32,172 nucleotides of DNA from Deltaproteobacteria bacterium (GTDB taxonomy: Bacteria > Desulfobacterota > Desulfuromonadia > Desulfuromonadales > Geopsychrobacteraceae): the NCBI GenBank assembly GCA_013152145.1, contig JAADGW010000025.1, forward strand, positions 1 to 32,172, given 5' to 3'. The notes beneath the pieces were generated by a model. It made no database searches. It was not told the DNA's origin and was given only the letters and a program-made list of their open reading frames with translations. This document shows, in pieces, positions 1,381 through 18,164 of the stretch. A program made the position numbers and the translations under genes. Each line of letters begins with the position of its first letter. Position 1 is the first letter of the stretch.

Positions 1381-1511
1381 GTGATGGCCTCGGGGTGCCC
1401 ACTTCAAGGGTGTCTGTCGCCTGGATGGCGACAGTCAAGCCCCATGGATGGGTTCATGCGGCCCTTGGAGTGGACAGCGCGAGGCCATCCATCGCGCTGC
1501 TGAGTAGTTAC
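1381..1511 (-). mobile_element. MITE copy B (131 bp), left terminus carries a 13-nt deletion; reverse orientation relative to copy A
   Basis: Near-identical to the reverse complement of 7739-7881. Flanked by direct repeats CAGTTTTT at 1373-1380 and 1512-1519. Right end is GCTGAGTAGTTAC. Confidence 0.85.
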
Positions 1512-6499: not shown

Positions 6500-6531
6500 A
6501 AACGAACCGGGACATCACCGGTCAACGGAAT

Positions 6532-6582
6532 CTGACAGAAAAGGGCCACGGCGATTATTGCCGTGGCCCCCTTTTCTGTCAG
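6532..6582. terminator. Bidirectional rho-independent terminator between ChaN-like gene and fba
   Basis: CTGACAGAAAAGGGCCACGGC-GATTATT-GCCGTGGCCCCCTTTTCTGTCAG between convergent genes. Confidence 0.9.
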
Positions 6583-6597
6583 ATATGCAACCTTCGG

Positions 6598-7738: not shown

Positions 7739-7881
7739 GTAACTATTCAGCAGCGCGATGGATGACCTCGCGCTACCCACTCCAAGGGCCGCATGAACCC
7801 ATCCATGGGGCTTGACTGTCGCCATCCAGGCGACAGCACCCTTGAAGTGGGCACCCCGAGGCCATCCGGCTGAATAGTTAC
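7739..7881 (+). mobile_element. MITE copy A (143 bp, intact reference copy)
   Basis: Perfect 13-bp termini GTAACTATTCAGC/GCTGAATAGTTAC, flanked by perfect 8-bp direct repeats ATAGAGAG at 7731-7738 and 7882-7889. Internal hairpin CTGTCGCC-ATCCA-GGCGACAG. No ORF that could encode a transposase. Confidence 0.9.
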
Positions 7882-14497: not shown

Positions 14498-14552
14498 GTA
14501 ACTATTCAGCGGCGCGATGTGGCACCCCGAGGTCATCCTGCTGAAGAGTTAC
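14498..14552 (+). mobile_element. MITE copy C (55 bp, internal-deletion derivative)
   Basis: GTAACTATTCAGCGGCGCGATG|TGGCACCCCGAGGTCATCCTGCTGAAGAGTTAC. Flanks ACAACCTG (14490-14497) and GCAACCTG (14553-14560), 7/8 identical. Confidence 0.8.
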
Positions 14553-14596: not shown

Positions 14597-15073
14597 ATGA
14601 AAAAAATTCTGGCGTTATTTCTGGCCTCATTCATCCTGTTCGCCTTCTGTGGGCCAAGCTTTGCCTCCAAGGAAAAGGCGACGGTTGCCGAATGTATCGC
14701 AATGAGCAAAAAGGCTGCCGCAATGATCCTTAAAGATAAAGATGCCGCCTTGGCGGAAATTTCAAAAAGAAATGGAAAATTCGTCTGGAAAGATTCCTAC
14801 GTTTTTGTCATGAATTTAAAAGGTAAAATGCTCGCGCACCCGATGATGCCCGGCCTGATGAAGATGGAGAGCCTGCTGAGTACCCCGGATAAAAACCCCA
14901 AAAAACCGAAGATGCTGTTTGTCGACTTTGTTGTCACCGCAGGAACTAAAGGTGAAGGCTGGGTTGAATACATGTGGCCGAAACCGGGCCAGACCGAACC
15001 CTCCATTAAAGAAACTTATATCTACCGCATCCCCGGCACGTCGATGTTTACCGGCGCGGGGATCTATCGTTAA
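14597..15073 (+). CDS. Secreted single Cache-domain protein
   Basis: Signal peptide MKKILALFLASFILFAFCGPSFA; KFVWKDSYVFVMNLKGKMLAHPMMPGLM...GWVEYMWPKPGQTEPSIKETYIYRIPGTSMFTGAGIY typical of a Cache sensor fold. RBS AAAGGAG. Confidence 0.82.
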   Translation: MKKILALFLASFILFAFCGPSFASKEKATVAECIAMSKKAAAMILKDKDAALAEISKRNGKFVWKDSYVFVMNLKGKMLAHPMMPGLMKMESLLSTPDKNPKKPKMLFVDFVVTAGTKGEGWVEYMWPKPGQTEPSIKETYIYRIPGTSMFTGAGIYR

Positions 15074-15090: not shown

Positions 15091-15192
15091 GCAGTGACAC
15101 AAGAAGTGGGCATTTAAATTTGTAAACTGTTCAGGCAGATGGCCTCGGGGTGCTGAATAGTTACTTAAGTTTTTCACTTTTTGTGTCACTGC
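15091..15192. terminator. Bidirectional terminator-like inverted repeat interrupted by MITE copy D
   Basis: Arms GCAGTGACACAAGAAGTG (15091-15108) and CACTTTTTGTGTCACTGC (15175-15192), 17/18 complementary, between convergent genes; copy D lies between the arms. Confidence 0.75.
15122..15164 (-). mobile_element. MITE copy D (43 bp, most reduced derivative)
   Basis: GTAAACTGTTCAGGCAGATGGCCTCGGGG|TGCTGAATAGTTAC. Flanks TTAAATTT (15114-15121) and TTAAGTTT (15165-15172), 7/8 identical. Confidence 0.78.
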
Positions 15193-15198
15193 GAAAAC

Positions 15199-15903
15199 TT
15201 ATCCGAACAGATCCCCGCGCGTAAAACGACTCACCAGCGGCCCGTATGGTGGCACTTCAGCAACCCGTAACTGCCCTTTGAACGCGGTACGCGAAATCTC
15301 TTCCGCCCCCAGGCTGAAGAGGTGATCGGTTGACTGTTGACAATCGAGCAGAACAAATCCCAGCTGTTCCAGCCGCTTCATCAGATAAATCAACACCAGC
15401 TTCGAGGCATTGTCACGGCGGCTGAACATCGACTCGCCAAAAAAGCAGCGTCCCAGGCAGACCCCGTAGATGCCGCCGACCAAGTCCTCTCCGTCCCAAC
15501 ATTCCACGGAATGGGCAAAGCCGAGTTCGTGCAGGTGGATATAGGCCTGTTGCATTTCCGGCGTAATCCAGGTTCCACTGCCATCTGAATTTTTCCGCAA
15601 TCGGCGGCACCAGTAAATAACCCCGGCGAAATTTTCGTCGATACTGACACGGAAAGTTTGCTTGCGCAGGAAACGCCGCATCGAATGAGAGATATGCAGT
15701 TTTGCCGGGAACAGAACGCAACGCGGATCAGGCGACCACCAGAGGATTGGCTCGCCGGGGTTGTACCAGGGGAAAATTCCGAGGCTGTATGCCAGCAGTA
15801 ACCGTTCGGCAGACAAATCACCGCCGACCGCCAGCAGGCCATAATCCTCAGCTGCCTCGATCGGCGGGAACCAGAGTTCCTCATCAAGTTGATAGCAGGG
15901 CAT
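15199..15903 (-). CDS. aat: Leucyl/phenylalanyl-tRNA--protein transferase
   Basis: MPCYQLDEELWFPPIEAAEDYGLLAVGGDLSAERLLLAYSLGIFPWYNPGEPILWWSPDPRCVLFP...HSVECWDGEDLVGGIYGVCLGRCFFGESMFS. ATG overlaps the clpA stop (TGATG). Confidence 0.95.
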   Translation of the reverse strand: MPCYQLDEELWFPPIEAAEDYGLLAVGGDLSAERLLLAYSLGIFPWYNPGEPILWWSPDPRCVLFPAKLHISHSMRRFLRKQTFRVSIDENFAGVIYWCRRLRKNSDGSGTWITPEMQQAYIHLHELGFAHSVECWDGEDLVGGIYGVCLGRCFFGESMFSRRDNASKLVLIYLMKRLEQLGFVLLDCQQSTDHLFSLGAEEISRTAFKGQLRVAEVPPYGPLVSRFTRGDLFG

Positions 15904-18164
15904 CAGTCCCGGATAAATTTGAAGGTCAATTTGCCGGCTTGGCAACCGACCCGGACCCCACCACCATCACGAAGCTCACCGAAGAGGATTTTTTCCGCCA
16001 ACGGATCATTTATTTCACGCTGGATCAGACGTCCCAGCGGCCGCGCTCCGAAATGGGGGTCATAGCCGCGTCGGGCCAGGTCACGTCGCGCCGCCGGTGA
16101 AACCTTCATGCTGACATCCCGATCTGCCAATTGATTGGCCAGCTCGCCGATGAATTTATCGACCACCTGCAGCATAACCTTTTCATTGAGCGGAGAAAAA
16201 TGGATCGTTGCATCGAGCCGATTGCGGAATTCCGGCGAGAAGACCTTGTCAACAGCATTTTTCGGTGCCGCTGCAGTCCGCTCACCGAAACCGATCGGCA
16301 CCGTGTTCATTTCCCGGCCACCGATATTGCTGGTCATAATCAGAATAACATTGCGGAAGTCAATTTCCTTGCCGTTGTTGTCGGTCAGGGTGCCGTGATC
16401 CATCACCTGTAACAGAATATTGAACAGGTCGGGATGAGCTTTTTCGATTTCGTCGAGCAGTAATACCGACCAGGGATTTTTATTGACCTCCTCGGTTAAC
16501 AGCCCACCCTGATCAAAGCCGACGTAGCCCGGAGGAGCACCGATCAAACGCGCCACCGAATGCTTCTCCATGTACTCGCTCATGTCAAAACGCAGAAACT
16601 TGACCCCGAGCTGCAACGCCAGCTGCCGCGCAGCTTCCGTTTTACCCACCCCGGTCGGGCCGGTAAACAGCAGTGAACCGACCGGTTTATCGGGATGTCC
16701 CAGCCCGGCCCGGGAACGGTGAATCGATTTGACCAGACTCTCGATGGCCGGATTCTGGCCGAACACCACCCGCTTGAGATCCCGCTCCAGATAACGCAGG
16801 CGCTGCCGATCGCTGCCGGAAACCGTGCGGATCGGCACCCGCGCCATCCGTGCCACCACCCGCTCAATTTCATCGAGCCCGATCAGCTTGTGCAGTTTCT
16901 CGTCAAGCCGCTGCTGTGCTCCAGCCTCGTCGATCACGTCGATCGCCTTATCCGGCAGATGTCGCTGAGACAGATGTTTGACCGACAGCTGTACAGCAGA
17001 CTCCAGCGCCTCCGGCGCATATTTAACGTTGTGATGCTCCTCGTAGCGTGAGCTGAGTCCCTTAATAATTTCCAGCGTCTCTTCAGCACTCGGCTCGTGC
17101 AGGTCGATTTTCTGGAAGCGACGCGACAGGGCGCGATCCTTATCGAACAGGTTGCGATATTCCTCGTAGGTGGTCGAGCCGATACAGCGCAGTTCACCGG
17201 AACCGAGTGCCGGTTTGAGGATGTTTGATGCATCGAGAGAACCACCGCTGGTTGCGCCGGCCCCGACGATGGTGTGAATCTCGTCGATAAACAGGATCGC
17301 CTGCTCACGCTTCTGCAGGGCGGAGATCACCGCTTTGAGTCGTTCCTCGAAATCACCGCGGAATTTGGTTCCGGCCAGCAGGGCTCCCATATCCAGGGTG
17401 AACAGCTCACTGCCCTTGAGCAACTCCGGAACCTTCCCCTCGGCAACCCGTAGCGCCAATCCTTCCGCCATAGCGGTTTTGCCGACACCCGGCTCACCAA
17501 CAAAAATCGGGTTATTTTTACGCCGTCGACAGAGCACCAGAATGGCCCGTTCCAGCTCCTGCTCGCGCCCGATCAAAGGATCTATCTTCCCTTCTCTGGC
17601 CCGCGCGATCAGGTCGATGGTGTAAGACTTCAGGGGATCGGCCGGCTGTGGTTTCGGCTTGCTGCGTTCTCCCGGAGCCGGATCTGCTGCCGGTCGTTCA
17701 TCAGGCTCTTCTGATGAACTGCCGCCCGACCCGTGTGAGATATAGTCAAGCAGATCGACCCGTTCAATCCCCTGGCTCTGCAGGAAAAAACAGGCGTGGG
17801 AATTCTCTTCTTCGAGGATTGCGGCCAGCAGATCACCGACCCCGACTTCTCGTTGGTTGGAGGCCTGCATGTGCAACACGGTCCGTTGCAGCATCCGTTG
17901 CAGCGCCAGAGTCTGTCGCGGGACCTCTTCATCATCAACCCCCTCGGGGAGATGCTCCAGGTGCAGATCGAAGAAGTTTTCCAGCAGTTTTTTCAACCCG
18001 GCGATATCGCCGCCACAAGCCGACAGAATCTGTTGTCCGGCACCTTCGGACAACAGCGCATAAAGGATGTGCTCAGTGGTCAGGTATTCATGCCGCCGGC
18101 GCTGTGCTTCACGAACCGCCAGGGTAAAAGCTATTTGAACATCATGGTTAAACATTTCAGCCAC
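15903..18164 (-). CDS. clpA: ATP-dependent Clp protease ATP-binding subunit ClpA
   Basis: MFNHDVQIAFTLAVREAQRRRHEYLTTEHILYALL Clp_N repeat; two Walker A motifs (GEPGVGKTAMAEG, GPTGVGKTEAARQ). GTG at 18164 or ATG at 18155 as start. Confidence 0.96.
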   Translation of the reverse strand: MAEMFNHDVQIAFTLAVREAQRRRHEYLTTEHILYALLSEGAGQQILSACGGDIAGLKKLLENFFDLHLEHLPEGVDDEEVPRQTLALQRMLQRTVLHMQASNQREVGVGDLLAAILEEENSHACFFLQSQGIERVDLLDYISHGSGGSSSEEPDERPAADPAPGERSKPKPQPADPLKSYTIDLIARAREGKIDPLIGREQELERAILVLCRRRKNNPIFVGEPGVGKTAMAEGLALRVAEGKVPELLKGSELFTLDMGALLAGTKFRGDFEERLKAVISALQKREQAILFIDEIHTIVGAGATSGGSLDASNILKPALGSGELRCIGSTTYEEYRNLFDKDRALSRRFQKIDLHEPSAEETLEIIKGLSSRYEEHHNVKYAPEALESAVQLSVKHLSQRHLPDKAIDVIDEAGAQQRLDEKLHKLIGLDEIERVVARMARVPIRTVSGSDRQRLRYLERDLKRVVFGQNPAIESLVKSIHRSRAGLGHPDKPVGSLLFTGPTGVGKTEAARQLALQLGVKFLRFDMSEYMEKHSVARLIGAPPGYVGFDQGGLLTEEVNKNPWSVLLLDEIEKAHPDLFNILLQVMDHGTLTDNNGKEIDFRNVILIMTSNIGGREMNTVPIGFGERTAAAPKNAVDKVFSPEFRNRLDATIHFSPLNEKVMLQVVDKFIGELANQLADRDVSMKVSPAARRDLARRGYDPHFGARPLGRLIQREINDPLAEKILFGELRDGGGVRVGCQAGKLTFKFIRD

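What the first reader, a model, noticed from the sequence alone, without database searches (positions are those of the whole stretch)
15091..15192. MITE inserted into the loop of a bidirectional terminator
Arms GCAGTGACACAAGAAGTG and CACTTTTTGTGTCACTGC (17/18 complementary, mismatch is G/T) flank copy D and its target repeats TTAAATTT/TTAAGTTT. Removing the 43-bp element and one 8-mer restores a compact terminator-like hairpin between the convergent Cache and aat genes. The self-complementary element may preserve or extend the terminator stem. Similar targeting of hairpins by small IS elements is known.
Basis: partly seen in the sequence, partly recalled or inferred. Interest (0 to 1): 0.62.

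Follow-up and report, generated by a model that had tools for sequence, protein, structure and literature searches.

The report
Orphan IS66 mini-transposon in terminator loop
A very small, gene-less jumping element, one of roughly 170-215 copies in this genome, happened to land in the A+T-rich loop of the hairpin that probably ends transcription of two genes facing each other; the hairpin can still fold, and the other copies show no liking for hairpins, so the arrangement is real but ordinary.

Summary
Observation confirmed. Arms 15091-15108/15175-15192 pair 17/18 plus one G·T (21 pairs with G·T once extended). They enclose a 43-bp element (15122-15164) with flanking 8-mers TTAAATTT/TTAAGTTT. 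The element belongs to a MITE family with ends GTAACTATTCAG. End counts imply about 170-215 copies in this 2.7-Mb Desulfuromonadales MAG. Of 112 elements paired in a ~1-Mb sample, 87 have 8-bp flanks matching at 6-8 of 8 positions, so the target duplication is real. Six IS66 (ISBst12-type) transposase genes in relatives carry the same ends, two with perfect 8-bp duplications; this MAG has no IS66 hit.

The terminator reading is supported. Both relatives that keep Cache><aat have a canonical bidirectional terminator in the same alignment columns, without the element. All 11 other Cache orthologues are followed by a predicted terminator. Long hairpins with buried A/T tracts are typical of convergent gene pairs here.

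The wider claim fails: 86 other insertion sites are less hairpin-prone than random intergenic points (0/86 versus 45/1500 strong), so one such hit is compatible with chance. The preference is for A+T-rich targets. Shuffled inserts let the arms fold about as well. Verdict: a MITE in a terminator loop, by chance. Termination itself is inferred.

The parts
14597..15073 (+). Cache-domain gene (dCache_2/sCache_2), converges on aat
   Evidence: Pfam; ORF; 11 other Cache orthologues in family genomes
15199..15945 (-). aat, leucyl/phenylalanyl-tRNA-protein transferase, convergent partner
   Evidence: Pfam PF03588; orthologues
   Evidence: aligned with terminator arms of relatives
15114..15121 (+). target-site duplication, left copy TTAAATTT
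   Evidence: 8-bp duplication is the family rule: 87 elements with at least 6/8 matching flanks, null 2 of 435 shifted comparisons
15122..15164 (.). MITE copy D, 43 bp, ends GTAAACTGTTCAG / CTGAATAGTTAC
   Evidence: family size; same ends on IS66 elements
15165..15172 (+). target-site duplication, right copy TTAAGTTT (7/8)
15173..15193 (+). right arm of the presumed terminator hairpin, contains the T-run CTTTTTG
   Evidence: T-run in the same alignment columns as terminator T-tracts of G002 and G003
1381..1510 (.). family copy A (long form, left terminal repeat mostly lost; flanks CAGTTTTT on both sides; coordinates approximate)
7739..7881 (.). family copy B, 143-bp long form, target duplication ATAGAGAG 8/8
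14498..14552 (.). family copy C, 55-bp form, flanks ACAACCTG/GCAACCTG 7/8, upstream of the Cache gene

Best explanation
Copy D is a non-autonomous IS66-family (ISBst12-type) MITE. It transposed, with 8-bp target duplication, into the A+T-rich loop of a pre-existing hairpin that terminates transcription from both sides between the convergent genes Cache and aat. It landed there because it prefers short A+T-rich targets, is found only between genes, and is very numerous; it did not recognise the hairpin. The outer arms still pair around the insert, so the hairpin now has a 43-bp larger, itself foldable, head, and termination is probably kept to some degree. Shown: arms, target duplication, family, IS66 link, the relatives' terminators at the same place, no hairpin preference. 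Inferred: that this hairpin terminates transcription, before or after the insertion.
For: Family and target duplication: 344 end matches at no more than 1 mismatch versus 0 control matches in this genome; 87 elements with at least 6/8 matching 8-bp flanks versus 2 of 435 shifted comparisons. IS66 link: all six close IS66 transposase loci (G009, two in G129, G104, G111, G098) are flanked by GTAACTATTCAG-type ends, two with perfect 8-bp duplications; the published ISBst12-group element ISDge4 has ends GTGACTACTCAGCA / GTAACTGCTCAGCA and an 8-bp repeat (PMC12898284). Terminator: orthologous Cache><aat gaps in G002 and G003 hold canonical bidirectional terminators in the same columns, without the MITE; 11/11 other Cache orthologues have a predicted terminator after the stop codon; convergent gene pairs here carry long hairpins (median 13 bp, 36% at least 16 bp, against 8 bp and 2% for tandem pairs), several with the A/T tract buried in an extended stem exactly as here, e.g. 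window 6530-6584. Chance: controls reach D's class of hairpin (score at least 40) in 4/1500 points, so about 0.23 such sites are expected among 87 insertions. Outer arms still pair with probability 0.98 on the plus strand and 0.84 on the minus strand with D in place.
Against: No T-run follows either outer arm, and my own scanner for canonical terminators (hairpins up to 60 nt) finds none at the site with D removed and only a weak one with D. The upper stem that is GC-rich in the relatives is mostly G·U or unpaired here (core hairpin -4.4 kcal/mol without D), so the terminator may have decayed before or after the insertion. D's terminal repeat and duplication carry mutations, so the event is not recent and the original target cannot be read exactly. 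No relative closer than about 80% protein identity was available.
Confidence: 0.8

Rival explanations
1. The element family actively targets hairpins or terminators (as some REP-targeting IS and group IIC introns do), and D is one instance.
For: D itself sits in the centre of a very strong hairpin. IS elements that insert specifically into palindromic REP sequences are known (PMC1525189).
Against: 86 other reconstructed target sites score below random intergenic controls (mean 13.6 vs 15.0; 0/86 vs 45/1500 at score 25 or more; weaker folding energy) and convergent gaps are not preferred (13 of 79 copies with gene context vs 14% of intergenic bases).
Confidence: 0.03
2. The outer arms are not a terminator but the inverted ends of another mobile element into which D inserted (nested insertion).
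For: Long arms; unrelated long inverted-repeat families exist in this genome.
Against: The arms have no further copies: a 15-nt arm pattern at up to 2 mismatches gives 9 matches, no more than its reversed control (14), and only the two at this site are exact. The arms align column for column with the relatives' terminators.
Confidence: 0.05
3. D rescued a decayed terminator: the ancestral GC-rich upper stem was lost and the palindromic MITE now supplies the upper stem in front of the T-run, so the MITE was kept by selection.
For: Core hairpin next to the T-run goes from -4.4 to -19.7 kcal/mol on the plus strand and from -2.1 to -10.4 on the minus strand when D is present.
Against: Shuffled inserts of the same composition do nearly as well for the whole hairpin (62/300 equal or better); the order of decay and insertion is unknown; no sign of selection could be measured.
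Confidence: 0.1
4. The hairpin is an mRNA 3'-end stabiliser or a DNA cruciform with no terminating role.
For: No T-run outside the arms; no Rfam match; the T-run is base-paired in the full stem.
Against: Position, T-run columns and class match terminators of convergent genes here and in relatives.
Confidence: 0.12

Closest known systems
IS66 family, ISBst12 group (e.g. ISDge4 of Deinococcus geothermalis, PMC12898284)
   Same: End sequence (GTAACTGCTCAGCA against GTAACTATTCAGCA), 8-bp target duplication, single transposase ORF in the relatives' full-length elements
   Different: The window elements are mostly 35-147 bp, carry no transposase, and no IS66 transposase was found in this (86.6% complete) genome
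High-copy bacterial MITEs derived from IS elements (e.g. MITECca01 of Cardinium, 169 copies, PMC9769881)
   Same: Gene-less, mostly intergenic, on the order of 200 copies, ends shared with a parental IS
   Different: Parental family here is IS66 rather than IS982; several size forms (about 42, 54, 69, 144 bp); no intact parent seen in the same genome
IS elements that insert into REP palindromes (ISPpu9/10, ISPsy8 and others, PMC1525189) and group IIC introns that insert after terminator stem-loops (the latter from general knowledge)
   Same: A mobile element found inside or beside a hairpin
   Different: Those recognise the hairpin; this family does not prefer hairpins
Intrinsic bidirectional terminators between convergent genes
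   Same: Position, A-run/T-run symmetry, shared columns with relatives' terminators
   Different: T-run buried in an extended stem and upper stem degenerate; loop now holds a MITE

Membership tests
MITE (non-autonomous IS derivative) | Short, no coding capacity, terminal inverted repeats | tested here: met
   Mostly 35-147 bp, 12-nt ends, too short for a transposase
MITE (non-autonomous IS derivative) | Fixed-length target-site duplication | tested here: met
   8 bp; 87 elements with at least 6/8 match versus 2/435 in shifted control; D itself 7/8
MITE (non-autonomous IS derivative) | Multiple dispersed copies | tested here: met
   about 170-215 copies estimated from end counts
IS66 / ISBst12-group derivative | Ends shared with an element that encodes an IS66 transposase | tested here: met
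   Six of six P0001-like transposase loci flanked by the same ends; P0001 hits PF03050 above its cut-off
IS66 / ISBst12-group derivative | 8-bp target duplication of the full-length element | tested here: met
   L208 CTTGTTTT and L210 AATAAAAG perfect; L207 6/8; L209, L211 and L212 not recognisable
IS66 / ISBst12-group derivative | Mobilised in this host by that transposase | not testable with these tools
   No PF03050 hit in this MAG; assembly is incomplete
Intrinsic bidirectional terminator | GC-rich stem between convergent genes | tested here: inconclusive
   Strong stem, -30 kcal/mol without D, but its upper part is G·U or A+T-rich
Intrinsic bidirectional terminator | T-run immediately after the stem on both strands | tested here: not met
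   T-run lies within the right arm, none after either outer arm; the same buried layout occurs in other convergent gaps of this genome
Intrinsic bidirectional terminator | Causes termination | not testable with these tools
   No transcript data
Hairpin-targeting mobile element | Insertion sites enriched in hairpins | tested here: not met
   86 other sites below controls

The most novel reading that the evidence does not exclude
The palindromic MITE has become the working upper stem of the terminator, replacing a decayed GC-rich stem, so that a mobile element is now a functional module of a bidirectional terminator.
Probability: 0.1. Interest if true: 0.45.

Novelty: new member of a known kind. 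Interest (0 to 1): 0.28.

Why it matters
It gives a clean example, anchored by aligned relatives, of a mini-element landing in a terminator without abolishing its fold, and it names the transposase family behind an unusually dense MITE population in Desulfuromonadales. The hairpin-targeting idea, which would have been the surprising part, is tested on 86 other sites and does not hold.

Tried and rejected
Arms as ends of a second repeat family: no other copies. Rfam: no match. The built-in terminator scan does not see the site because its loop limit is 8 nt. Hairpin targeting: tested twice (47 sites; 87 sites) and rejected. Convergent-gap preference: none. Special role of D's palindrome: not distinguishable from shuffled inserts. 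The IS66 hits L204 and L205 do not have the family ends around the transposase; only L206/L207 and its homologues do. My gene calls are a simple codon-usage caller, adequate for gene/intergenic context only. Literature searches found no description of this MITE family, but most subscription papers are not in the library.

Full report
OBSERVATION. The enclosed element is 15122-15164, flanked by TTAAATTT (15114-15121) and TTAAGTTT (15165-15172). All of it lies between the stop codons of a Cache-domain gene (ends 15073) and aat (ends 15199, minus strand). The spanning hairpin with the element removed is at the 99.8th percentile of random intergenic positions of this genome. One detail differs from a textbook terminator: no T-run follows either outer arm; CTTTTTG is inside the right arm.

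THE ELEMENT. D belongs to a large family with ends GTAACTATTCAG...CTGAATAGTTAC. In the 2.7-Mb, 86.6%-complete MAG the end motif occurs 344 times at no more than 1 mismatch (control 0) and 464 times at no more than 2 (control 31), i.e. about 170-215 copies. In about 1 Mb of sampled contigs I paired 112 elements; 87 have 8-bp flanks identical at 6 or more positions, against 2 of 435 shifted comparisons. Size classes peak near 42, 54, 69 and 144 bp. In the 638-kb subset with gene calls, all 62 copies with two neighbouring genes lie between genes, although 85% of the sequence is coding. Target sites are A+T-rich (8-mer GC 32%) with A-rich left and T-rich right halves, which fits the TTTAAATTTTT loop.

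PARENT TRANSPOSON. No IS66 transposase is seen in this MAG, but the congeneric genome G009 has one flanked by exactly these ends, and all its close homologues in the order are too: six loci, 1.70-1.73 kb between outer ends, with perfect 8-bp duplications in L208 and L210. The single-ORF layout, ends and 8-bp repeat match the ISBst12 group of IS66, for instance ISDge4 (GTGACTACTCAGCA / GTAACTGCTCAGCA; PMC12898284). So D is an IS66-derived MITE in a genome where the parent appears to be lost or unassembled.

THE HAIRPIN. Of the family genomes, G002 and G003 keep Cache and aat convergent. Their gaps have no MITE and hold AAAAAGCGGAGGCC-ATCA-GGCCTCCGCTTTTT and AAGAAGCGGGAGCC-TTCA-AGGCTCCCGCTTTT, predicted terminators on both strands. 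Aligned to the window with D and one 8-mer removed, the arms, loop and T-run fall in the same columns. All 11 other Cache orthologues are followed by a predicted terminator. In this genome convergent gaps typically hold long hairpins (median 13 bp, 36% at least 16 bp; tandem gaps 8 bp, 2%), several with the A/T tract buried in a longer stem as here, e.g. window 6530-6584 and L193 6705-6759. I therefore accept 'bidirectional terminator' as the likely ancestral and probably present role, while noting that the upper stem is weak here (core -4.4 kcal/mol on the plus strand without D) and that my own canonical scanner (hairpins up to 60 nt) does not call it.

TARGETING. For 87 insertions with a clear duplication I rebuilt the target and scored the best hairpin spanning it. 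Without D the 86 others average 13.6 against 15.0 for 1500 random intergenic points; none of 86 reaches 25 while 45 of 1500 controls do, and none reaches D's class. From the controls about 0.23 D-like hits are expected in 87 insertions, so seeing one is unremarkable. Copies by gap type (tandem 47, divergent 19, convergent 13) follow available intergenic bases. The family does not target hairpins.

EFFECT OF THE INSERT. With D present the outer arms still pair (probability 0.98 plus strand, 0.84 minus strand) and the whole hairpin goes from -30.3 to -45.6 kcal/mol on the plus strand; but shuffled inserts average -43.3 and 62 of 300 are as good. So the fold survives because the arms are strong, not because D is palindromic. 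D could make the short hairpin just before the T-run more stable (-4.4 to -19.7 plus strand), which is the only route to a functional role that I can see, and it is untested.

VERDICT. The anatomy is right and the terminator reading is reasonable; the general hairpin-targeting idea and a special role for self-complementarity are not supported. This is a new member of a known kind.

Noticed in passing
G000 (own genome), e.g. window 7739-7881, L175 6995-7138: A MITE family with about 170-215 copies in a 2.7-Mb genome with no visible IS66 parent; several other genomes of the taxonomic family (G012, G021, G028, G014, G001, G008, G009) carry many copies of similar ends while G002, G003 and G006 have almost none.
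   Followed up: partly
window 6530-6584; L193 6705-6759; L198 4324-4381; L173 10020-10068; L176 293-336: Hairpins of 16-27 bp between convergent genes in which the A-tract/T-tract is buried inside an extended stem that continues below it, a layout shared with the Cache/aat hairpin.
   Followed up: partly
window 15054-15065 and 15209-15220: A perfect 12-nt inverted repeat GCGCGGGGATCT/AGATCCCCGCGC in the last codons of the two convergent genes, outside the hairpin and roughly concentric with it; in the closest relatives the sequence differs, so probably chance.
   Followed up: partly
L195 12678-12756; L197 3064-3136; L199 1148-1224; L169 5685-5731: A second intergenic inverted-repeat family built on GCCACCAAG..CCAAGA(G)CACC-like units.
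   Followed up: no
L199 3567-3613; L194 4363-4411; L192 4101-4141: A third palindromic intergenic family of the form (A)AATCCCCCTCG..CGAGGGGGATT(T).
   Followed up: no
L044 and L046 (G001, G008), just downstream of aat: In two congeneric genomes without a Cache neighbour a long-form copy of the same MITE family sits just downstream of aat, an independent insertion.
   Followed up: no
window about 1373-1518 (copy A): Copy A has intact 8-bp flanks CAGTTTTT but has lost most of its left terminal repeat (GT joined to GATGGCC), so the deletion probably came after insertion.
   Followed up: no
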